From Devosia epidermidihirudinis (GTDB lineage Bacteria; Pseudomonadota; Alphaproteobacteria; Rhizobiales; Devosiaceae), in assembly GCF_000971295.1 (NCBI RefSeq), contig NZ_LANJ01000012.1, positions 186,001 through 250,000 of the forward strand: DNA of 64,000 bases, given 5' to 3'. A program made the translations under genes and the position numbers. Positions 42,577 to 54,582 of this stretch are shown here, in pieces; positions within the stretch are counted from its first letter, which is position 1; each line of letters opens with the position of its first letter. The notes under the pieces are model-generated. The model did no database searches, had not been told where the DNA came from, and worked only from the letters and a program-made list of their open reading frames with translations.

Positions 42577-42596
42577 CGGGAGCCTCAGGGCTCCCG
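42577..42596. terminator. Bidirectional hairpin between the toroid gene and hlyD
   Basis: CGGGAGCC and GGCTCCCG form a perfect 8-bp stem with a TCAG loop. It starts six bases after the plus-strand stop, and the loop supplies the TGA stop of the minus-strand HlyD gene. Confidence 0.6.
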
Positions 42597-43979
42597 CAGG
42601 CTTTCGTCCAACCCCCGGATCAGCGGATAGAGGAAATACGAAATCACGCTGCGCTCGCCGGCGTGAATTTCTGCTGAGACGGTCATGCCGGGCAGCAGCC
42701 GGAACGTCGCCGGAACCTGCTTGAGTTGATCCTCTCCCAAGGCAATCCGTACCCTATAGAATGCGGCGCCACCCGCAGGATTGGCGTCGGCTGGCTTAGC
42801 GAAGGAGTTCTCGCTGATCGAGATGACCTTACCCTCGATCGTGCCATGCTCCTGAAAGGGGAAGGCATCAAACTTAATCCTCGCCGCGTCGCCAATGGCC
42901 AGATGGCCAATGTCATTGCTGGCGACGGTGACTTCGACCTCCAGCGGCACATTGAGTGGCACCAGCGTGATCAACGGCTCGGCTGGCTGCACCACTGACG
43001 CAACGGAGCGCTGGGCAACCTCCAGAACAGCGGCATCGGCGGGGGCAACTAGTTCCGACATGGAGCTACGCAGATTGACCTTCCGCAGCTCTTCGCCTGC
43101 GCCAGCCTGCTTGTCCTCAAGATCAACGAGGGCCTCCATGGCTAGCCGACGATAGTCCTCGATATAGTTCTGCCGTTCGGCCCTGGTCTGCTCGAGCTGT
43201 TGCACAGCCTCGGCATACTGGCCGCGCACCTGCGTGAGCGTTACCTGAATATCGAGGCTCAGATCACGGCTTTGCATGAAATTGAGACGCGAGCCATTGC
43301 CGGCATCGGCCAGCGTTTCGTGCATGGTCTGGATTTCCTGCAGGCCCGTCAGCCGCTTGTCCAACATCGCCTCTTGCGCCTTGGACGCCTCTAGCGTCGC
43401 GTTGACATGGGCGATCTGAGCGTCGAAATCCGCAAGTTTGGCTTGATAGGCGGCATAGCGCTGCGCTGCGAGTTGGCCCTGCATTTGCGCCTCAGACGAA
43501 GCGCCAGCAGGCGCCACGTAGCGCGTGCCCGCCAGCTCCGCCTTGATCCGGTCAATTTGAGCCTTGAAGCCCGCGAGCTTGGCTTGCAACTGCCCGGAAT
43601 CGGCTGAGGCAAAGGTGGGATCCAGTGTGGCCAACAATTGCCCTTTGTGGACGATGTCGCCAGACTTCACCGAGATCGTCCGAATGATCGACGTTTCGAA
43701 CGGCTGCATGACCAGCGTTGGCTCAGACGTCGTGAGCTTACCGGGCGCCACGACGATCTCGTCGATATTGGACACGCTCGCCCACCAGATGCCGCAACCA
43801 ATGGCAGTCGCCACCAGGTACAGCGTCAGCCGCGCTGTGATAGGCGGCTTGCGCTCTTCCAGTGCAATCGCATCAGTTTGAAAATCCATCACCGCAGCCT
43901 GTGCGGCGGGCTTTACCAGGATGAGTTTGGGTACCTTCGTGGCTTTTGCCGGGCGGACGATTTTGGGTTGAGCACTCAT
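42585..43979 (-). CDS. HlyD-family type I secretion membrane-fusion protein
   Basis: The 464-residue adaptor links the inner-membrane ABC transporter to an outer-membrane TolC-type channel. One membrane helix lies at about 50-68, followed by a lipoyl half (VVAPGKLTTSEPTLVMQPFE), a long coiled coil (about 125-300) and the second lipoyl and beta-barrel parts ending in GMTVSAEIHAGERSVISYFL. The ATG at 43979 overlaps the stop of the ABC gene (ATGA), and an upstream in-frame start at 44006 is not needed. No TolC gene is in the window. It is the last gene of the secretion cluster. Confidence 0.93.
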   Translation of the reverse strand: MSAQPKIVRPAKATKVPKLILVKPAAQAAVMDFQTDAIALEERKPPITARLTLYLVATAIGCGIWWASVSNIDEIVVAPGKLTTSEPTLVMQPFETSIIRTISVKSGDIVHKGQLLATLDPTFASADSGQLQAKLAGFKAQIDRIKAELAGTRYVAPAGASSEAQMQGQLAAQRYAAYQAKLADFDAQIAHVNATLEASKAQEAMLDKRLTGLQEIQTMHETLADAGNGSRLNFMQSRDLSLDIQVTLTQVRGQYAEAVQQLEQTRAERQNYIEDYRRLAMEALVDLEDKQAGAGEELRKVNLRSSMSELVAPADAAVLEVAQRSVASVVQPAEPLITLVPLNVPLEVEVTVASNDIGHLAIGDAARIKFDAFPFQEHGTIEGKVISISENSFAKPADANPAGGAAFYRVRIALGEDQLKQVPATFRLLPGMTVSAEIHAGERSVISYFLYPLIRGLDESLREP

Positions 43980-46126
43980 CCGACAAGCTTCATCTGCTGG
44001 TTCCACAGGTGCCGATACGTCGTGCAGCGCGACACCAGCTGGCTATGTGGCCCCACATCAACCAACCGCCCGCGATCAACAACCAGGATCGCATCCGCGT
44101 CGGTGAGCATGGACAAGCGATGGGACACGATGATCACCGTGCGGCCCGCCGCGATGCCTTTGATGCTGCGTTTGACGATGGCTTCGCTCTCTGGATCGAG
44201 AGCGCTCGTGGCCTCATCGAGAATAAGGATCTTGGGGTCGGTGACGAGCGCCCGGGCGATGGACAGTCGCTGGCGTTGCCCGCCGGACAGATTCTCGGCC
44301 CCCTCCTCGATCAGCGTGTCATAGCCACGCGGCAATTGCTCGATGAACTCGACGGCGCCAGCCAGTTTTGCCGCCGCCACGACCTGCTCGAAAGTCGCGT
44401 CAGGCTTGGCTGCCGCGATGTTGTCGCGCACCGTGCCCCGAAACAGGAAATTATCCTGCAGCACAACGCCGACACTCCTGCGCAGATGATTGAGGTCGAG
44501 CTCGCGCACATCGTGCCCGCCAATGCGGATCAATCCCTGCTGGATCGGATACAAGCCTTGGATCAAACGCGTAACCGTACTCTTACCGGACCCACTTCGC
44601 CCAACCACGCCCATAATGCTGCCGTCAGGCACCGAAAAGCTGATGTCGTTGAGCGCAAAGGCCCCATCCTGCCGATAGCGAAACGCCACGTTCTCGAAAT
44701 CTATCCCACCGGCCAGATCTGGCCGGAGGCCTTCGGTGCGGCCCGAGCGCTCCTCTTTCTCGTTCATCACGACGCCGAGCATGCGAACCGAGAGCGCCAC
44801 TTCCTGGTACTCGTGCACCATAGTCACGATTTGGACGAGCGGTCCTGAGACGCGCCCAGCCAGCATATTGAACGCGATCAGCGCTCCGACCGTCATCATC
44901 CCGTCGAACACCTGCAACGCACCGACGCCGATGATGGCCACCCCCATCAGCTTTTCCAGCAGGCCAGTGACCGCTTGGGCGGTAATCGAAATGGTTTCGA
45001 CCTTGAACCGCGTATTGATTGTCTGCGCCGACCGGTCATCCCATACCCGCCGCTGCAAGGGCTCCATCGCCAGCGACTTCAGCGTCCGCATGCCGTGGAC
45101 GGTCTCCACCAGCAGACCCTGCCGCTCGCCCTCAGCCGCATAGAGCGCCGCAAGCCGCTTGCGAAATGGCGCGACAAGTAGCGCCACCACCAGCCCGATC
45201 AGCGCGCTGAATCCGAGCACGATCATCGATAATGTCGTGCTGTAGAGCAGCAGCACCGGCACGAACACGAATAGCGACAGCGCATCGAGCAGCGTCAGGA
45301 ACAACCGACCCGTCAGAAACTCTCGGATGCGGCTGGACTGCTGCATGTGTTTGACGAGGACGCCGGCCGAAGCCTGCTCGAAAAAGGTGATCGGCAAGTC
45401 GAGCAGGTGTTTGAATGTCCGCGTGGCAACACGAATGTCGATGCGGTTCGTTGCGTAGATCAACAGGTATCGGCGCAGGAAAACAAACATCGCCTCGAAC
45501 AGCAGCGCGACGCCAACACCCACCGCGAGCACCGACAATGTCGAGTAGCTTTGGTGAACCAACACTTTGTCGATCACGAGCTGGAAGAAAATCGGCGTGG
45601 CCAGCCCCAGCGCGTAAAGGAAGAGCGCCGCCACAGCGACGTCCATGAACAACCGCCTCTGCTGCAATATCTCTGGAATGAACCAGCGAAAGCCAAAGGG
45701 TTGTTCGGGATCCGCCAGGCGATAGCTGCGCTTGGTCAGCAACAGGTCGCCGTTCCAGTGCTTGGCGAACTGGTCAAGCTTGACTTCAATTTGCCCGCCC
45801 GGCGCTTCCGCCAGCGGATCATAGAGGCGGAGAACGGCTTCCCCTCCTTCGCCCAACTCAGCGCCCAGCACGGCGACCCAATTGCCATTTTGAAGTCGGG
45901 CCAAGGCCGGATAGGCCTGACCAAGTCGCAAAATGGCCTTTTGGTTGACCTTGGTGCGATGGGCTCGCAAACCGGCGTCGCGCGCCATGCGCAGCATCAG
46001 CTCAAAGCTGATGCCTTCGTCGCGGATCGCATAATCCGCAACCAATCGCTCGGCATTGCCATCAAACCCGTGATGCCGCAGCGCTACCGCGAGGCATTCA
46101 GGGCCGGTTTGAACCTGGGGACCCAT
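43976..46126 (-). CDS. Type I secretion ABC transporter with inactive C39-like domain
   Basis: This 716-residue HlyB-like transporter has an N-terminal C39-like domain (about 1-130), a membrane part (about 155-430) and an ATPase with Walker A GRSGSGKSTVTR, signature LSGGQRQRLSIARALV and Walker B ILILDEATSALD. In true C39 peptidases the motif is Q....DCGPxCL; here it reads QTGPECLAVAL, with Thr at the place of the catalytic Cys. The domain should therefore bind substrate without cleaving it, as in HlyB. The 101-residue protein and the giant modular protein lie directly upstream on the same strand and are the obvious substrate candidates. Confidence 0.93.
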   Translation of the reverse strand: MGPQVQTGPECLAVALRHHGFDGNAERLVADYAIRDEGISFELMLRMARDAGLRAHRTKVNQKAILRLGQAYPALARLQNGNWVAVLGAELGEGGEAVLRLYDPLAEAPGGQIEVKLDQFAKHWNGDLLLTKRSYRLADPEQPFGFRWFIPEILQQRRLFMDVAVAALFLYALGLATPIFFQLVIDKVLVHQSYSTLSVLAVGVGVALLFEAMFVFLRRYLLIYATNRIDIRVATRTFKHLLDLPITFFEQASAGVLVKHMQQSSRIREFLTGRLFLTLLDALSLFVFVPVLLLYSTTLSMIVLGFSALIGLVVALLVAPFRKRLAALYAAEGERQGLLVETVHGMRTLKSLAMEPLQRRVWDDRSAQTINTRFKVETISITAQAVTGLLEKLMGVAIIGVGALQVFDGMMTVGALIAFNMLAGRVSGPLVQIVTMVHEYQEVALSVRMLGVVMNEKEERSGRTEGLRPDLAGGIDFENVAFRYRQDGAFALNDISFSVPDGSIMGVVGRSGSGKSTVTRLIQGLYPIQQGLIRIGGHDVRELDLNHLRRSVGVVLQDNFLFRGTVRDNIAAAKPDATFEQVVAAAKLAGAVEFIEQLPRGYDTLIEEGAENLSGGQRQRLSIARALVTDPKILILDEATSALDPESEAIVKRSIKGIAAGRTVIIVSHRLSMLTDADAILVVDRGRLVDVGPHSQLVSRCTTYRHLWNQQMKLVG

Positions 46127-46146: not shown

Positions 46147-46452
46147 TCAGACGAAGTTCGGCGAGGCGTTGTGGTGTGCGCTGCCATTGGCCTTGCCCGA
46201 GGCAACCGGCACGACCACATCGTCATTGCGGCGAATGGCGCCAGCCTCGATCAGCCCAGCCATTGCCTTTTGCAACACATCAAAGCTGTTGGCAAAGCCT
46301 TCCAGCGACATAACGATGCGCTGGCGATGTTCCGGCACAGGCTGGCCCATATCGTCGCGCATGGTGGCGGATAGGCTCACCAAATCGAGCCGCACCACAG
46401 TCCCGGTGACGGTGATTTCGCCGATGGCGTCAGCGTAGAGTTCGCCTTGCAT
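46147..46452 (-). CDS. Small protein of the type I secretion cluster, unknown function
   Basis: The 101-residue product lies between the giant protein and the ABC transporter, 20 bases upstream of the latter. It shows a strand-rich core (GEITVTGTVVRLDLVSLSAT) followed by RQRIVMSLEGFANSFDVLQK and a helical part (AMAGLIEAGAIRR). I recall similar small proteins beside type I secretion genes in other alphaproteobacteria, but no function is known to me. There is no signal peptide or membrane segment, so it is probably cytoplasmic, perhaps a chaperone or regulator for export. The C-terminal 20 residues are low-complexity. Confidence 0.7.
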   Translation of the reverse strand: MQGELYADAIGEITVTGTVVRLDLVSLSATMRDDMGQPVPEHRQRIVMSLEGFANSFDVLQKAMAGLIEAGAIRRNDDVVVPVASGKANGSAHHNASPNFV

Positions 46453-46479: not shown

Positions 46480-49400
46480 TCAGGACGCCAGCGATCCGTT
46501 GAAGACGACGTCGACATGGTAGTTGGTGGCGTTGTAGCTACTGGTCGGAAATGCGCTGGTGCTGCCATACGCATAAAGCCCATTGCCGCCACTAGTTGAG
46601 CTGGATGGCGCAGTGAGCGGCCCGGAGGTGACAGCGGACGCGAAACCACCCGCCGAAGCGGAGTAGTTACCGTTGCTGTGGTAGGAGACCACGTAGGTGT
46701 TGCCTGCCGTAACCGAGATCGGCGTCGCGAACGAGGCAGTCTGCCAGCCGCTCGCGGTCTCGTTCTGAAACGTCAACGTCCCCAAATTAGCGCCCGCCGC
46801 ACTCCACAGCGTACCCGTATGGGTGCCGGTGTTCTGTGCGCCCTTATAGAAGCGGATCCCGGTGATGGTGCCGTTCTGGCTCGTGGTGAATTTCATGCCC
46901 AGTTCGACACTGTTCGGGTCGTTCACCGCTGCCGTTGTCGGCGTCGCGCTGCTCGGGAATAGCGAGATCCCCGTGGCCGGTGCAGCCACCGTCAGCGATA
47001 CATTGGCCGTCGCCGTGCCACCGCGACCATCAGAGATCGAGTAGCTGAACCCGGCGGCGCCGGAGTAGTCAGTCGTGGGCGTGAAGGTGATCGTATTGGT
47101 CTGCTGGTTGAAAGCGACAACGCCATTGGACGCACCGCCAACGCCTGTAACCACCAAAGGATCGCCGTTGGCATCGCTGTCATTGGCCAGCAACGTCGCC
47201 GCTGCGACTTGCAGCACGGTGTTCCGCTGCGTCACCAGGCCGGTGTCATTGACCGCCGTCGGCGCGACATTGGCGCCTTGCTGGTAGACGACGTCGACCC
47301 AGTAGTTGGTCGCATTGTAGCTATTGGTCGGCAGCACCGTGCTGGAGCCGTAGCTGTAAAGGCCGTTGAGGCTCCCGGGCACGCTCTGCGTCGCGGTAAG
47401 CGCCCCGTTGGTTGTGGCCGCGCCGAAGAAAGCACCGGTAGCCGAATAGTAACCGGTGGGGGCGTGGTAGGAGACGATGTAACTGCCGCCCGCCGCCACC
47501 GCGATCGGGTTGCTGAACGTGGCTGTCTGCCAACCAGACGCACTTTCATTGGTGAAGGTGACTGTGCCTAGTTGCGCACCTGTGCTGCTCCACAGAGTGC
47601 CGGTATGCGTGCCGACATTCTGTGGACCCTTGTAGAATTTGATACCCGTGATCGCGCCCGCTGAGGCCACAGTGAACCGCATGCCGAGCTCGACAGAGCT
47701 GGTGTCATTGACCGTCACATTGGCCGGCGTCGCGCCACTGCCGAACACGGAGCTCCCGGTCGCTGGTGCATTGACCGCCAGGGACACACCAGCCGAGGCC
47801 GATCCGCCCTTTCCGTCTGACACCGAATAGGTAAAGCCAGCAGCGCCTGTGTATCCGGCATTGGGCGTAAAGGTCACGATGTTGGTTTGAGCATTGAAGC
47901 TGACCGTGCCGTTGGTCGCACCGCTGACGCCAGAGATGGTCAGCAGGTCACCATCAGGGTCGGTGTCATTGGCCAAGAGGCTCGCCGCAGCGATCTGCAG
48001 GGCCTGCCCGGTTGTCGTCACATAGCCGCTATCATTATTGCTCACCGGAGGACGGTTTGGGGCTGCCAGAACGGTTAGCCCAACCGTCGCCGATGCGGTG
48101 CCGCCCTTGCCGTCCGAGATGGCATAGATGAACGACGCCGTGCCGAAATAGCCAGAAGTCGGTGTGAACACGACGGTGTTGGCCTGGGCGTTGTAGACCA
48201 CCGTGCCATTGACCGCGCCGCTCACCCCCGTAATCGTCAATGGGTCGCCGTCAGGGTCAGTGTCATTGGCCAGCAAGGCGGCGGAACTGAACGTTAGCGC
48301 CGTGTTGAGCGGCGTGGTCTGCCCGCTATCATTGACGGCGACTGGGGAGCGGTTGACCGTACCCGTCGAGGCGAGCACGACGTCCACCCAGTAATTGGTG
48401 CCGTTATAGCTGCTGGTCGGCATCACATTGCCGGTTCCATAGGTGAAGACGCCATTGCCTGCAGCGGGCGCCGTCAGCAGGCCGCTCACATGATCGGTCG
48501 TGAAGTAGTTGGGCGATGTCGCGTAGTTCCCATTGCTATGGAAGCTCGCGACATAGGTGGTCCCGGCGCTGATCTGCACAGGGCTGCCAAATGTCACCGT
48601 TTGCCAGCCGCTGGCGGTTTCATTGGCGAACACTGCCGAAGCCAGCAAGGTGCCGGTGCTGCTCCAGAGCGAGCCCGTATGTGTCCCGAGGTCGGTAGCG
48701 CTCTTGTAGTATTTGATACCGGTGATCGTCCCGGCTGCTGAAGCGACGAACTTGACGCCTAGATTGACCTGAGCCGCGTCGTTGCTCGACAGGTTCGTGG
48801 GCGTGTTGTTGGTGTTGAACAGCGAACTGTTGGTGACAGCAGCCACCACTTCCATGTTGACTAGGGCCGAGCCGGTGCCACCGCGACCGTCGGAAATCGA
48901 ATACCCAAAGCTCGCCTGGCCGGTGAAATTGGCGTTGGGCGTAAAAGTGAGCGTCTGGTTCTGTGCGTTAAACACCACCGTGCCGCCAGAAGCCGCGCCC
49001 GCGCCAATAATCGTCAGCGGGTCATTGTTTGGATCGGTGTCATTGGCCAGCAAGGTGGCGGCCGAGAACGTGATCGGCGTGTTGCGCTGGACAAGAAAGC
49101 CGTTATCGTTCCTCGCTATCGGCGGATCGTTGGGCAAAGCCACGCCGCTATAGATCACGTCGACCCAATAGTTCGTTCCCGCGGTGTTATTGAGCGTCGG
49201 GAACGCATTCTGGTTGGCGTAGACATACTTGCCACCCGTCGCCGTCAGCGCGCCACGCGTGACGGGACTGTCGAAGTAACCTGCGGTAGCCGCGTAACCA
49301 AGCGATCCAAAGTAACTGGCGACGTAGCTGGTGCCGGCCTGGATCGAAATCGGCGTGTCGAAGATGACCGTCTGCCATCCGCTCAGGGTTTCGTTTTTGA

Positions 49401-52185
49401 AAGTCGCCTTTGCAAGCAATGTCCCAGTAGAGGTCCACAGCGAGCCTACATGCTCGCCGGTATTGCCCACGCCCTTGTAATAGCGCAACCCGACAATGCT
49501 GCCAGACTGGCTAGCACTGAACGTCACGCCAACATTGACGGGCGTCGTGTCGCTGACAAATGGCCGGGTCGGCAACTCATTGGCGGCAAACAGATTGCCC
49601 GATCCGCCTTGGTCAACGTTTACGGTAATGCCCGCGCTGGGGGTTTCAAGATTGACGCTGTCGTCAACGGCCCGCGACAGAATGGTGTAGGTCCCACCCA
49701 CAATCGGGGTCCAACTATAGGTCCAGGTGGCAGCGCCGGACGCGCGATGCCAGGAGACGCCGCCATTGGTCGACACCTCAACCACCGCCACCTTGCCACC
49801 ACCGGTATCGGTTGCCGTACCGGTGATCGTGACCGTCTGGGCCGCGGTCAAAGCGCCAGCGGAGGTTGGTGAGGTGATCGTCGTTGTCGGAGCGGCGTGA
49901 TCGGTTGTTTGCGCCGCGACCGCCAGGCTTTGCATCAGCGTTGCCGGCTGAACGCCCATATCAGCGAACAGATTGACCATCGCCTGCTGCACATTGGGAT
50001 CGGTCGGCGTCGGCTCGTTGTCGTGGTGGCTATCAAGCCCCCACGACCAGTAGACCGTGCCCGCACCGAAGACCAAGGCGCCGCTCGGGGCGCGGTAAAG
50101 GGTCAGGCTGTGCGACGCCGTACCCGGTCCCACAGCGTTGCCATAGTCCAGCAACAGTGAGTTCACATCCACCGTAGTCGATGACAGGGGCACAAGCCCT
50201 GTTGGCCTGAAGCCATTGTCGAGATCTGAGTTCCACTCGTAGCCCAGGAGGTTCTTGGTGAGCGTGTAGACCTCGCCGGGCGCAAGGCCAGCTACCGCGG
50301 TGTTGCTCCAGAAGCGCAGCTGCGACATGTCATAAGGCACATTGATCGCATCGAGCCGATAGGAGTCGACGGTGAAGATCGTGCCGGTCAGGCTGTTCTC
50401 TGGCTGTCCCGATCCATAGACGGGATCGCGCCAAGTCGATGTCGTGCCCTCGACATCCGAATTGGCGTTGTCCCAGCGTTCCTTGTAGGAAACGAGAGTC
50501 TTGTAGGGTGTCCCCGAGCCGTCGATACTGGCTTCCCAGCGGGTCTGCCAATAGACTTCGTTGCCACTCCAGAACTGCAGATTCACGCCCGCATCACGTG
50601 CTGCCTCGACATTGGCGCGCTGCTCGCCGGACCAGTACTCGTCATGGCCAACTGACAAGAACACCTTACTGTTCAACAGCTGCGCCGCGTTGGCGGCTGT
50701 GTCGATGCCCGAGATGTAATTTACGTCATAGCCGTTCTGCTCGAGAAACCGGATGGCGGGGTATTCGACGCCGAACACGAAATCCTGCGGTCCCGCTGAG
50801 AAGCCACCATCTCGCGTGATGATCGGCCGGTTATAGCTGACCGCGCTGGCCCGGCCCGCATGTCCTCCGGCGTCAATGCCCCCGTAGAAGTTGTAGCCGC
50901 CCCACCAGTTGTAGGCCTGCCAGGTCGTGTCGGAGGTCTGAAAGGTTATATCGCTTGGTGCCTCGTCATCGCGCACAATGAACGGGATCATATTGGCCCC
51001 GCCCGAGCCATCCAACCGCGTCAACTTGGCGAAATAGACGCCAGACACCGCATCCTGTGGCACGGCCCATGAGGCGGACACAGACCAGTTCCCGGCATCA
51101 ACCAGTTTGGTTGTGGGATCAAACAGCGGCAGCGGCTGGGCTTGCGCCGTCGTGAGGGTGCGATTGATCGTGTCGACCTTCCGCGCGCCCATGCCGCCAT
51201 AGTAGCCAAGGCGATAGATATCGATCTGGTAGTTCTTGGAGTCTGTGTTGATCTTGAAATCGACGGTCTGCCCATGGTTCAGGGTAAACTGGGCGGCATA
51301 GCCTTCAATGGTGGCGTCCGCCTTGCCGATCATCCAGACGCTTTCGGGCGTGCCCTGCTTCTGGTTTTCCAGCACAATCGCGTTCGTCACGGCAGCCGCA
51401 GGCGCCATTAGCCCCTTGGCTTCTGGCGCGGCGCTCGACACGGTCAGGGATGGCGCGATCGCTTTGACGCTCACGGCCTCCTCCGATGAATCAAAGAACA
51501 TCAGCGTCCGCGACGCGTAACCCGTCGGTTGCCCATTGGATGCCGTCGGCCCGCCAGTGCGGATCGAACACATGGTGCAAGCGCGACCGGTACAAGAGCC
51601 ACAGGGCGTCGTCGCGGCAGCCGAAACCCAACTGCCGCGCCAATCCGCCAAAGCAGTTGAAGGCGCGATTTCACTTGGCGGCGCAACGGCCTCCGCGCTC
51701 TCGGGCATAACTGGCAGCGGCGTGTTTGGAGTGGAGGGTTGGCTCGTGGTGTTTGGGACCGACGCTCCGGACGAAGTCGCACTTGGCGGAACATTCAGCG
51801 GAGCCGAGGTAACCGGGGGCGGCGTCAGTGCAGGTTGCGGCGCACCTGACGTCGGAGCGGCAGCAGAAGCGCTCGATGGTCCGGCGACGAACGGCTCGAC
51901 GAACGACGGTACCGTTGCAAAAAACCGCCCACCAGTACTCGAAGGCTGCGCAGAAAATGCGCGGCGGAACACGTTTCCGGCCCCACCATGGTCCTGCGGC
52001 GAAGCAAGCGGCGCGGCGTCCCAAACAGACTTAGCCTCGCTCCGATAATTGGTAACAGCCTTGCTCCGTTGGGACAGGCGCTGCCGGTGCATCTTCGTTG
52101 CGGCGGCGGTCTTCGCGACCGTGCTGAACTGGGTACCAGGTTGGCTGCGGATGGCGGTGCTGTACGTTTTCATACGAGTCCCCAT
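46480..52185 (-). CDS. Giant modular surface protein, probable type I secretion substrate
   Basis: The product is 1901 residues from the ATG at 52185 (or 1897 from the ATG at 52173); the frame is open further upstream but runs into rmlC. In order it holds a basic N-terminus, a Ser/Thr/Pro-rich region (about 100-180), a cysteine cluster CGSCTGRACTMC (195-206) and a domain like the C-terminal part of the N,N-dimethylformamidase large subunit (about 285-750; SVGHDEYWSGEQRANVEAAR, SGNEVYWQTRW). After these come an Ig-like domain (766-858) and four DUF4082-like domains (865-1013, 1121-1272, 1478-1634, 1740-1895). They are interleaved with four cadherin-like Ig repeats marked by LLANDTDPDGD and ISDGRGGT (1021-1114, 1280-1374, 1378-1472, 1641-1733). 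It has no Sec signal and no RTX nonapeptides, yet lies next to type I secretion genes. Confidence 0.88.
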   Translation of the reverse strand: MGTRMKTYSTAIRSQPGTQFSTVAKTAAATKMHRQRLSQRSKAVTNYRSEAKSVWDAAPLASPQDHGGAGNVFRRAFSAQPSSTGGRFFATVPSFVEPFVAGPSSASAAAPTSGAPQPALTPPPVTSAPLNVPPSATSSGASVPNTTSQPSTPNTPLPVMPESAEAVAPPSEIAPSTALADWRGSWVSAAATTPCGSCTGRACTMCSIRTGGPTASNGQPTGYASRTLMFFDSSEEAVSVKAIAPSLTVSSAAPEAKGLMAPAAAVTNAIVLENQKQGTPESVWMIGKADATIEGYAAQFTLNHGQTVDFKINTDSKNYQIDIYRLGYYGGMGARKVDTINRTLTTAQAQPLPLFDPTTKLVDAGNWSVSASWAVPQDAVSGVYFAKLTRLDGSGGANMIPFIVRDDEAPSDITFQTSDTTWQAYNWWGGYNFYGGIDAGGHAGRASAVSYNRPIITRDGGFSAGPQDFVFGVEYPAIRFLEQNGYDVNYISGIDTAANAAQLLNSKVFLSVGHDEYWSGEQRANVEAARDAGVNLQFWSGNEVYWQTRWEASIDGSGTPYKTLVSYKERWDNANSDVEGTTSTWRDPVYGSGQPENSLTGTIFTVDSYRLDAINVPYDMSQLRFWSNTAVAGLAPGEVYTLTKNLLGYEWNSDLDNGFRPTGLVPLSSTTVDVNSLLLDYGNAVGPGTASHSLTLYRAPSGALVFGAGTVYWSWGLDSHHDNEPTPTDPNVQQAMVNLFADMGVQPATLMQSLAVAAQTTDHAAPTTTITSPTSAGALTAAQTVTITGTATDTGGGKVAVVEVSTNGGVSWHRASGAATWTYSWTPIVGGTYTILSRAVDDSVNLETPSAGITVNVDQGGSGNLFAANELPTRPFVSDTTPVNVGVTFSASQSGSIVGLRYYKGVGNTGEHVGSLWTSTGTLLAKATFKNETLSGWQTVIFDTPISIQAGTSYVASYFGSLGYAATAGYFDSPVTRGALTATGGKYVYANQNAFPTLNNTAGTNYWVDVIYSGVALPNDPPIARNDNGFLVQRNTPITFSAATLLANDTDPNNDPLTIIGAGAASGGTVVFNAQNQTLTFTPNANFTGQASFGYSISDGRGGTGSALVNMEVVAAVTNSSLFNTNNTPTNLSSNDAAQVNLGVKFVASAAGTITGIKYYKSATDLGTHTGSLWSSTGTLLASAVFANETASGWQTVTFGSPVQISAGTTYVASFHSNGNYATSPNYFTTDHVSGLLTAPAAGNGVFTYGTGNVMPTSSYNGTNYWVDVVLASTGTVNRSPVAVNDSGQTTPLNTALTFSSAALLANDTDPDGDPLTITGVSGAVNGTVVYNAQANTVVFTPTSGYFGTASFIYAISDGKGGTASATVGLTVLAAPNRPPVSNNDSGYVTTTGQALQIAAASLLANDTDPDGDLLTISGVSGATNGTVSFNAQTNIVTFTPNAGYTGAAGFTYSVSDGKGGSASAGVSLAVNAPATGSSVFGSGATPANVTVNDTSSVELGMRFTVASAGAITGIKFYKGPQNVGTHTGTLWSSTGAQLGTVTFTNESASGWQTATFSNPIAVAAGGSYIVSYHAPTGYYSATGAFFGAATTNGALTATQSVPGSLNGLYSYGSSTVLPTNSYNATNYWVDVVYQQGANVAPTAVNDTGLVTQRNTVLQVAAATLLANDSDANGDPLVVTGVGGASNGVVAFNQQTNTITFTPTTDYSGAAGFSYSISDGRGGTATANVSLTVAAPATGISLFPSSATPTTAAVNDPNSVELGMKFTTSQNGTITGIRFYKGAQNTGTHTGTLWSAAGANLGTLTFQNETASGWQTASFATPISVTAGNTYVVSYHSNGNYSASAGGFASAVTSGPLTAPSSSTSGGNGLYAYGSTSAFPTSSYNATNYHVDVVFNGSLAS
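46501..49593 (-). repeat. Tandem DUF4082-like and cadherin-like coding repeats
   Basis: Four related DUF4082-like segments lie at 49593-49147, 48825-48370, 47754-47284 and 46968-46501 on the minus strand, sharing TGIKYYK, GTHTGSLWSSTG, ASGWQT and NYWVDV patterns. Between them are four related segments of about 280 bases coding LLANDTDPDGDPLTI-type repeats. Copies 3 and 4 of the DUF4082-like unit look closest to each other. The array makes this region prone to recombination and to assembly errors. Confidence 0.75.
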
Positions 52186-52241
52186 GAGCTTACGTGCACG
52201 AGGTTTGCACGCGAGACGGGGTGCCGAAATCAATCGAAGGA

Positions 52242-52820
52242 TTATTGCCGGTCTAGTTCGCCGACCAGTTTCGGATCTGCCGGGATCAAGGCAACCCGCA
52301 GCGGCAAGGCAGCGGCATCCTTGCCCGACAGAAGCGGGTCGCCGAACAGCGGCCACGCAATCCCGATATCGGCATCATCCCAGCGGATCGAGCGTTCCAG
52401 CGAAGGCTGATAGTAGGCGTCAGCCTTGTAGAGCACCTCGCAATCGCTCAGCGCCAAAAACCCATGCGCAAATCCCGGCGGGATCCAGAGCTGCTTGTGG
52501 TTCTCTGCTGACAGGGTGACCCCGGCCCACTGCCCTAGGGTGTCGGACTGTGGCCGCAAATCCACCGCCACATCAAAGATCGAGCCCTGTAGCACCCGCA
52601 CCAGTTTGCCCTGCGCGCCTGGCTCCAATTGATAGTGCAGCCCGCGCAATACGCCAGCATGCGATATTGAGTGATTGTCCTGAACAAACGGCCGTCGATA
52701 GCCGGTAAGCTCAGTAAAGAGCGCATCGTTGTAGCTTTCAAAGAATGCGCCGCGCTCGTCCGCAAGTACCCGCGGCTCCAGCACAACCAGCCCTTCGAGT
52801 TCCAGCTCAATGGCGTTCAC
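52242..52820 (-). CDS. rmlC: dTDP-4-dehydrorhamnose 3,5-epimerase
   Basis: This 192-residue cupin enzyme performs the third step of dTDP-L-rhamnose synthesis. Family marks are [13 protein letters not shown], the catalytic-His region [35 protein letters not shown] and the [20 protein letters not shown] motif with the conserved Tyr. The start is a GTG overlapping the rmlA stop (GTGA). It is the last gene of the rml set; the giant surface-protein gene starts 57 bases downstream. Confidence 0.95.
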
Positions 52821-53701
52821 GTCAAAAGCGCCTCTGTCGCGAGGTTGCGCAGGTATCGCCCATAACCGCTGTTTTCGAGTGGGGCGGCCAGAGCGAGCAA
52901 TTCGGCGGTATCAATCCAGCCCTGTCGCCAGGCGATTTCCTCCGGGCAGGCGATCTTTTGCCCCTGCCGGTGCTCGACCGTCGCGATGAACTGCCCGGCC
53001 TCCAACAGTGAGTCATGCGTGCCGGTATCCAGCCAGGCATAGCCACGCCCCATGATCTGCACATGCAACCGGCCACCATCGAGATAGAGCCGATTGAGAT
53101 CGGTAATCTCCAACTCGTTGCGATGCGAAGGTTTCAGGCTTTTGGCGAGCGAGACCACATCAGGGTCGTAGAAGTACAGCCCTGTTACCGCGTAGTTCGA
53201 TTTCGGAACGGCGGGCTTTTCTTCGATGCCGATGACAACGCCGTGCTTGTCGAACTCGGCCACGCCATACCGGCTGGCGTCATCAACGTGATAGACGAAC
53301 ACCGTCGCCCCGTGATTGCCCATATCGGCCCGGTTGAGCAGCGCCGGGAAATCATGCCCGAAAAACAGATTGTCCCCCAGCACGAGGGCACTGGCGCGCT
53401 GGGCGATGAAGTCCTCGCCAATCAAAAATGCTTGCGCCAGACCGGCCGGGGTCGCCTGCTCAGCATAGGCGAACGAAACACCCCACTGCTCTCCGCTGCC
53501 CAACAGGCGACGGAAACGCGGCAGATCCTCTGGCGTCGAGATAACCAGCATATCCCGAATGCCCGCCAACATCAGCGTGGTCATCGAGTAGTAGATCATC
53601 GGCTTGTCATAGACAGGCAGCAGCTGCTTGGACATTGCGAAGGTGGCGGGATGCAGCCGTGTGCCATTGCCCCCCGCCAGAATGATGCCACACCGGTTCA
53701 T
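52817..53701 (-). CDS. rmlA: Glucose-1-phosphate thymidylyltransferase
   Basis: This 294-residue enzyme makes dTDP-glucose from dTTP and glucose-1-phosphate. The nucleotide-binding signature is [20 protein letters not shown], followed by [31 protein letters not shown] and the [20 protein letters not shown] segment typical of RmlA. The ATG at 53701 overlaps the rmlD stop (ATGA); an upstream in-frame start at 53746 lies inside rmlD and is not used. Confidence 0.96.
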
Positions 53702-54582
53702 GCTGCCACCAATTCGGCAACGGAGCGCGCGATTCCGTGCTGCCAATCTGGCACCGTTATGCCGAACGTCTCGCGAAGCATTTGCATGTCCAACCGCGAA
53801 TTCAGCGGCCGTGTGGCGGGAGTGGGATAGTCTCGCGTGGGAATTGGCGTGATGGAATCGGCCTCTAGCGCGAGCGAAGCACCTAGCCTGCGCGCCTCCG
53901 CAATGATGTGCAGGGCAACATCATACCAGCTCGCCGCTCCCGCCGCGGCCAGATGATAGACGCCATCGGGCGCATCCCCATCGATCATCTGCCGCAGGGC
54001 ATGCGCAGTGATATCGGCAATCAGTTCAGCGCTGGTCGGCGCGCCGACCTGGTCGTCCACCACGTTCAACGTTGTCCGCTCAGCCGCCAGACGCAGGATG
54101 GTTCGGACGAAATTCTGTCCCCGCGCTGCATGCACCCAGGATGTTCTAAAAATCAGGTGGCGGCATCCGGAAGCTCGAATTGCCTCGTCGCCCGCCAACT
54201 TGCTGCGCCCGTAAGTGTTCAGGGGTGCCGGAGTATCGGTCTCGACAAAAGGCGCCGTCCCCTCCCCGTCATAAACATAGTCGCTGGAGAAATGGACAAG
54301 CCAGCCACCATGCCGGGCGGCAAGGCGCGCGAGGATATCCACCGCTCGATGATTGATCGCGTCGGCCTCCTGCGGCTGAGCCTCAGCGCGATCGACAGCG
54401 GTATAGCCAGCTGCATTGACCAAAACGTCCGGGCGATGGTCGTCCCACACGTGCCCTACGCTGATTGGGTCAAGCAGATTCAACGACGTGCGCGACGCCA
54501 CGACGATCTCGCCAAGGGGCGCCAGCGCGCGCTGTAGCTCCCAGCCCACCTGCCCCGAACCACCCACAATCAGGATCCTCAT
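53698..54582 (-). CDS. rmlD: dTDP-4-dehydrorhamnose reductase
   Basis: This 294-residue reductase completes dTDP-L-rhamnose. It has the NAD(P) fold [18 protein letters not shown], the segment [20 protein letters not shown] and the YxxxK motif in [13 protein letters not shown]. The ATG at 54582 overlaps the rmlB stop (ATGA). Gene order B-D-A-C with overlaps shows one operon. Confidence 0.96.

What the first reader, a model, noticed from the sequence alone, without database searches (positions are those of the whole stretch)
46147..46452. Small uncharacterised partner between a type I transporter and its cargo
A 101-residue protein with a strand-rich core and RQRIVMSLEGF lies between the giant protein and the ABC gene, with short gaps on both sides. 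I believe similar small genes occur beside type I transporters in other alphaproteobacteria. A dedicated chaperone, gatekeeper or regulator of type I export would be new.
Basis: partly seen in the sequence, partly recalled or inferred. Interest (0 to 1): 0.55.

Follow-up and report, generated by a model that had tools for sequence, protein, structure and literature searches.

The report
Small partner protein of type I exporters
A small uncharacterised protein made beside a bacterial export pump belongs to a widespread family related to RtxH, a protein of unknown function from toxin export gene clusters, and its constant link to one type of pump suggests that it helps feed giant proteins into it.

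Summary
The 101-codon gene is real: minus strand, 27 bases after a giant DUF4082/DMFA2_C gene and 20 bases before a HlyB-type ABC exporter with its HlyD partner. It matches no Pfam or NCBIfam family, yet profiles find relatives across the order, class and phylum. Gene and exporter occur in the same 16 of 136 family genomes; among 397 genomes of the order, the 16 closest exporters (51-100% identity) are exactly those with the gene beside them. The protein is a three-strand, one-helix domain plus a variable linker ending in S-[P/S]-N-F. Of 99 relatives examined, 39 of 40 with that tail have the exporter downstream within 2.2 kb, against 2 of 59 without it. Three tail-less relatives hit NCBIfam RtxH, a MARTX-locus protein of unknown function. 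I infer a cytosolic export partner whose domain serves the cargo and whose tail docks on the exporter; neither step is tested. Homology to RtxH is well supported, membership of RtxH proper is not met.

The parts
46147..46452 (-). small partner gene, 101 aa (P0001)
   Evidence: ORF and translation; relatives; dN/dS 0.07-0.17
46246..46428 (-). folded core, residues 9-69: three strands and one helix
   Evidence: AlphaFold2, pLDDT about 96-98 over residues 11-70
46153..46164 (-). C-terminal S-P-N-F motif, residues 97-100, after a variable disordered linker
   Evidence: invariant in 16 of 16 rows of A1; S-[PS]-N-F in 20 of 20 rows of A2; association with ABC
43976..46126 (-). HlyB-type ABC exporter with a C39-like domain
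   Evidence: Pfam and NCBIfam; best NCBIfam hit TIGR01846 664.5 bits, under its cut-off 725.55
42585..44006 (-). HlyD-family periplasmic adaptor
   Evidence: TIGR01843 324.9 bits, above cut-off 208.65
46480..52356 (-). giant neighbouring protein, presumed cargo (1958 aa as the longest ORF; the ATG at 52173 is the likelier start, by eye against relatives)
   Evidence: DMFA2_C, 4 x DUF4082, cadherin/Ig repeats; no GGxGxD repeat in 25 of 25 related ORFs; ATG position
42577..42596 (-). terminator-like hairpin after HlyD, probable end of the transcription unit
   Evidence: consensus scan only; 14 such sites found in the region against 8.1 expected

Best explanation
It is a dedicated cytosolic partner of a subfamily of type I exporters. 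Shown: a conserved three-strand, one-helix domain, a variable linker, an S-[P/S]-N-F tail, and near-strict co-occurrence and adjacency with one group of HlyB-type ABC transporters. Inferred: the domain (perhaps a dimer) binds the unfolded or partly made giant cargo, and the tail docks on the cytosolic side of the ABC exporter, so that the cargo is kept export-competent and handed over. Tail-less relatives, including the RtxH branch, would be the cargo-side form of the same protein, lacking or not needing the docking tail.
For: Adjacency: 15 of 15 strong family relatives besides the window have the ABC next downstream. The same 16 of 136 genomes, the window's own included, carry both genes. In the order sample, the 16 ABC proteins at 51-100% identity are exactly those with the gene beside them; the next, at 45% and below, lack it in 14 of 14 loci held. 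Tail: 39 of 40 tail-bearing members have an ABC within 2.2 kb downstream against 2 of 59 tail-less, Fisher p 6e-24, not corrected for kinship; tail-bearing members come from 16 genera in 13 family codes. In 7 of 7 loci with both kinds of copy and an ABC, the tail-bearing copy is the nearer one; in five of these (L163, L177, L182, L186, L188) an ORF of 620-683 aa lies between the copies, and the one scanned (L163) is serralysin-like with RTX repeats. Cargo candidates differ. The gene stays with the ABC where no DMFA2 giant is adjacent: L066, L067, L069 and two Azospirillum plasmids.
Against: No binding or secretion data. No solved relative by sequence and no significant PDB fold match (best E 0.24). 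Positions that set partnered exporters apart (17 representatives against 16 others) are not concentrated in the C39-like domain: 7 in residues 1-150, 24 in the membrane part, 1 in the ATPase, so no docking site is indicated. The split is not perfect: L185 has a tail-less copy and an ABC 2.6 kb downstream but no tail-bearing copy, and tail-less copies lie 36 bases from an HlyD-like gene in L187, 1.7 kb in L157 and 4.3 kb in L158. Only 16 of 59 tail-less members have an ORF of at least 900 aa on the same strand within 2.5 kb, against 25 of 40 tail-bearing, and at least one of the 16 (L137) looks by eye like a metabolic enzyme, so the cargo-side idea is weak for most tail-less members. That the giant protein is the cargo is itself inferred.
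Confidence: 0.5

Rival explanations
1. It regulates the operon or the exporter (transcription, translation, or switching of the ATPase) rather than handling cargo.
For: Adjacency alone does not separate this from a chaperone. Weak fold matches after the COMM domain (Z 5.4) are the nucleic-acid binders Pur-alpha and PC4, Z 4.3-4.5. In L140 two ORFs with response-regulator-like beginnings lie between the gene and the ABC (named by eye).
Against: The first 75 residues hold 10 acidic and 7 basic residues (counted from the sequence), with no sign of a basic face for DNA; all fold scores are below the level that means anything; the tail tracks the ABC across different neighbours.
Confidence: 0.15
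2. The small protein is itself a substrate: the S-P-N-F tail is a C-terminal type I signal and the domain acts outside, for example anchoring the giant protein.
For: Type I signals are C-terminal (recalled); the tail is C-terminal, follows a low-confidence, probably disordered linker and tracks the ABC.
Against: Tail-less relatives would then be unexported; the giants end in their own conserved C-terminus; the tail is far shorter than known type I signals (recalled).
Confidence: 0.15
3. It is an assembly or stability factor of the ABC-HlyD complex and never touches cargo.
For: It tracks the ABC rather than one cargo.
Against: The relative RtxH is encoded in the toxin operon rtxHCA, apart from rtxBDE (passage of PMC3034196), and some tail-less copies lie beside giant genes.
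Confidence: 0.12

Closest known systems
RtxH, product of the first gene of the MARTX operon rtxHCA (NCBIfam NF051470)
   Same: Same domain by profile comparison (A2 against three relatives that hit RtxH: probability 97.2%, E 4.3e-11); both belong to loci with type I export genes and very large proteins.
   Different: P0001 itself has no hit to the model and the three intermediates score 69-79 bits against a cut-off of 180. P0001 sits with the exporter genes, has the S-P-N-F tail that these three lack, and has a DUF4082 giant, not an acyltransferase and MARTX gene, beside it. A 2010 review calls rtxH of unknown function and found only in MARTX clusters (passage).
SecB acting for HasA export
   Same: A cytosolic protein that keeps a type I substrate export-competent (passages).
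   Different: SecB is a general chaperone not dedicated to one exporter (recalled) and HasD lacks a C39-like domain (passage); P0001 has no SecB match in Pfam.
C39-like domain of HlyB
   Same: Tethers unfolded cargo and is said to act like a chaperone (passage of PMC8277102).
   Different: It is part of the exporter itself; here a separate protein is added to an exporter that already has such a domain.
DUF3467 (PF11950)
   Same: 3 of 52 family members give matches, best E 9e-4; which three was not printed.
   Different: P0001 gives none; a lead only.

Membership tests
RtxH (NF051470) | score above the equivalog cut-off of 180 bits | tested here: not met
   P0001 no match at E<=10, HMMER filters on; L154, L155, L156 68.9-78.9 bits
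RtxH (NF051470) | shared homologous domain | tested here: met
   hhalign A2 against A4 (the three relatives that hit RtxH), probability 97.2, E 4.3e-11, 78 columns
RtxH (NF051470) | operon with the rtxC acyltransferase and a MARTX gene | tested here: not met
   neighbours are a DUF4082/DMFA2_C giant, ABC and HlyD
DUF3467 (PF11950) | score above 25 bits | tested here: not met
   no match of P0001 at E<=10; 0 of 1 in the own genome
SecB chaperone | SecB domain | tested here: not met
   no such Pfam match for P0001 at E<=10
SecB chaperone | antifolding activity on a type I substrate | not testable with these tools
   needs purified proteins
type I secretion system (neighbouring genes) | HlyB-type ABC (TIGR01846) and HlyD adaptor (TIGR01843) | tested here: inconclusive
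   HlyD above cut-off (324.9 against 208.65); ABC best hit TIGR01846 but under cut-off (664.5 against 725.55)
COMM / Pur-alpha / PC4 fold | same fold | tested here: inconclusive
   VIA-align Z 5.4, 4.5 and 4.4 over 56-61 residues; no Foldseek match at E<=0.001

The most novel reading that the evidence does not exclude
An RtxH-related superfamily supplies dedicated cytosolic adaptors for type I export of giant proteins across Pseudomonadota, and one branch carries a C-terminal S-P-N-F docking motif that defines a distinct exporter subclass: a four-part type I system.
Probability: 0.4. Interest if true: 0.8.

Novelty: new variant of a known kind. Interest (0 to 1): 0.6.

Why it matters
Type I export is usually described as three parts (recalled). 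If this gene is a dedicated further part, it would help explain how very long proteins without RTX repeats reach such an exporter, and would suggest a purpose for RtxH, which a 2010 review calls of unknown function (passage). The short invariant tail makes the idea testable by a five-codon deletion in harmless soil or root-nodule bacteria (Devosia, Rhizobium).

Tried and rejected
The fold searches gave nothing significant: Foldseek against PDB best E 0.40 and 0.24, VIA-align Z at most 5.4; I do not use them to assign function. Sequence search of the PDB gave nothing below E 1. The idea that this is DUF3467, which I had from memory, was tested and is weak (one search scanned ten other members and found no DUF3467). 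The idea that a docking site would show as partner-specific positions in the C39-like domain was tested and not supported. One origin of the partnered exporters is neither shown nor excluded: 2 changes on a quick tree of 54 rows, starred branches force 1, and long branches meet. PHROGs gave one strong but unnamed family for 2 of 52 members, the rest weak.

Rows dropped: G107/L038 (E 0.008) had no match to the A2 profile and is not among the 99. L073 (E 3e-4) has no type I ABC or HlyD match on the stretch that passes the score limits and is counted as tail-less. G915 and G932 (E 0.007-0.01) were not fetched. The window's own gene is not among the 99. In one search, L028 and L032 were left out as too short (split or cut exporter). 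In one search the tail pattern also met one unrelated 45-aa frame (L229). The samples overlap in part. The tail pattern was chosen after seeing the alignments; in L071 it is followed by 27 more residues, in the others by at most 4. The gene caller is a home-made aid trained on these loci, so counts of large neighbouring ORFs are rough, and several contigs end beside the gene.

Literature: full-text searches for rtxH with MARTX, rtxH with type I secretion, type I secretion with small protein or DUF4082, C39-like domain with chaperone, dedicated chaperone with type I secretion, DUF4082, LEPR-XLL, and Rhizobium with type I secretion listed no paper that, by title and start of abstract, is about this protein or a function of RtxH. 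Of papers I saw only listings and the passages; most subscription papers are not in the library.

Full report
The minus strand of the window carries, in order of transcription, a giant ORF (46480-52356), the small gene (46147-46452), an ABC gene (43976-46126) and a HlyD gene (42585-44006), with gaps of 27 and 20 bases and then an overlap. Pfam and NCBIfam name the exporter and adaptor and find DMFA2_C, four DUF4082 and cadherin-like repeats in the giant protein, but nothing for the small one beyond one Pfam match far under its cut-off (E 0.09). The closest named matches are six Devosia records, 74-83% identical. dN/dS of 0.07-0.17 in 4 of 4 comparisons points to a protein-coding gene under selection, with dS of 0.8-1.4.

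Neighbourhood in the family. A search of 136 genomes gave 17 matches, 16 strong, the window's own among them. In the other 15 the exporter is next downstream in 15 of 15 (in L028 split between two frames) and HlyD follows in 14 (the L032 contig ends inside the exporter); the DMFA2 part of the giant is upstream in 14, and in L039 the contig begins inside its DUF4082 repeats. The exporter at E<=1e-150 occurs in exactly the same 16 genomes.

Wider. A profile of 16 rows (A1) found the gene in 18 of 397 genomes of the order, 10 of 141 genera. Fourteen of the 16 fetched places have exporter and adaptor beside them; in three of these (L066, L067, L069) no DMFA2 giant is adjacent. Of the other two, L071 has only an adaptor remnant close by and L073 no type I genes. 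Searching the same 397 genomes with the exporter gave 53 genomes; the 16 best (51-100% identity) are exactly the 16 that carry the gene beside an exporter, then identity drops to 45% and below. Of 44 exporter loci held with about 1.5 kb flanks, the 30 closest (L189-L218, family and order together) have the gene and the 14 others (L219-L232) do not, even with all filters off at E<=10.

Two classes. With distant members added (A2) the class sample gave 27 of 385 genomes and the phylum sample 35 of 299. I fetched 60 stretches and, with the earlier loci, examined 99 members on 91 loci, the window's own not counted. Forty have S-[P/S]-N-F at or near the end after a linker of varying length; 59 do not. 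An exporter lies downstream on the same strand within 150 bases in 35 of 40 and 0 of 59, within 2.2 kb in 39 of 40 and 2 of 59, within 8 kb in 39 of 40 and 8 of 59. Of those 8, seven are second copies in a locus that also has a tail-bearing copy; L185 is the exception. The one tail-bearing member without an exporter is L071. Tail-less copies also lie 36 bases from an HlyD-like gene in L187, 1.7 kb in L157 and 4.3 kb in L158. These counts are not corrected for kinship; tail-bearing members come from 16 genera in 13 family codes. A tblastn search of named plasmids gave 111 records, 96 of them Rhizobium; of these I opened 7, of which 6 have tail, exporter and adaptor and 1 (Methylobacterium) has a gene that ends before the tail and no such exporter. 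In four Rhizobium and Azospirillum records it is annotated as a hypothetical protein.

RtxH. Three tail-less members, L154, L155 and L156, match NCBIfam RtxH at E 5e-19 to 4e-22, under its cut-off. The P0001 family profile matches these three at probability 97%, E 4e-11. A 2010 review states that rtxH is of unknown function and found only in MARTX clusters, and that rtxH, rtxC and rtxA are expressed on one mRNA (passages of PMC3034196). So the domain is wider than that review knew, and P0001 is a relative, not a member, of RtxH.

Structure. AlphaFold2 gives three strands and a helix with high confidence and a low-confidence tail. The nearest solved folds, COMM domain, Pur-alpha and PC4, score too low to mean more than a common arrangement. 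That those folds dimerise is recalled; a dimer here is a guess.

Cargo. Neighbouring candidates differ: DUF4082/DMFA2 giants; among six ORFs scanned, a serralysin-like RTX protein and two clostripain-like proteins near tail-bearing members, and beside tail-less members an Ig-repeat giant, an RTX protein with a nucleotidase domain, and one giant with no match. None of 25 DMFA2-related ORFs has a GGxGxD repeat, although the exporter has a C39-like domain, which a review links to RTX cargo (passage of PMC8277102). That its active site is degenerate was read by eye from the alignment.

Mechanism. Adjacency, co-occurrence and the tail-exporter link are shown. That the protein is cytosolic (no hydrophobic leader seen by eye), binds cargo, and docks by its tail are inferences; a search for partner-specific exporter positions did not point to a docking site, and most tail-less members have no large ORF near (43 of 59). 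I put the export-partner reading at 0.5, regulator and substrate at 0.15 each, assembly factor at 0.12.

Noticed in passing
window 46480-52356: The giant protein's relatives carry no GGxGxD repeat in 25 of 25 ORFs, and 23 of 25 end in [LI]A[SA], beside an exporter with a C39-like domain, which is said to go with RTX cargo (passage).
   Followed up: partly
L058 10447-11679; L061 10287-11510; L233 7701-8933: In these loci a GTPase with a GFLGxGKTT...CICC pattern (CobW-like by eye; annotated GTP-binding protein in Rhizobium) lies between the giant gene and the small gene.
   Followed up: no
L163, L177, L182, L186, L188: Operons with two copies: tail-less copy, an ORF of 620-683 aa (serralysin-like in L163), tail-bearing copy, exporter; a natural test of what the tail does.
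   Followed up: partly
L028 10082-12246; L031 7334-7711: The exporter is split between two frames in L028 (also in named Devosia algicola, L004) and HlyD in L031 is in two pieces: frameshift, decay or sequencing error.
   Followed up: no
window 52817-53746; L069 10221-11108; L236 15901-16267: The operon lies near sugar-nucleotide and polysaccharide genes in Devosia, in group g50 and in Azospirillum, hinting at a surface-polysaccharide link of the system.
   Followed up: no
L175 1-7821: A giant ORF beside a tail-less member starts with a PLEDRIMLSADP-like stretch (LEPR-XLL type, by eye) and has no Pfam match at E<=1e-4.
   Followed up: no
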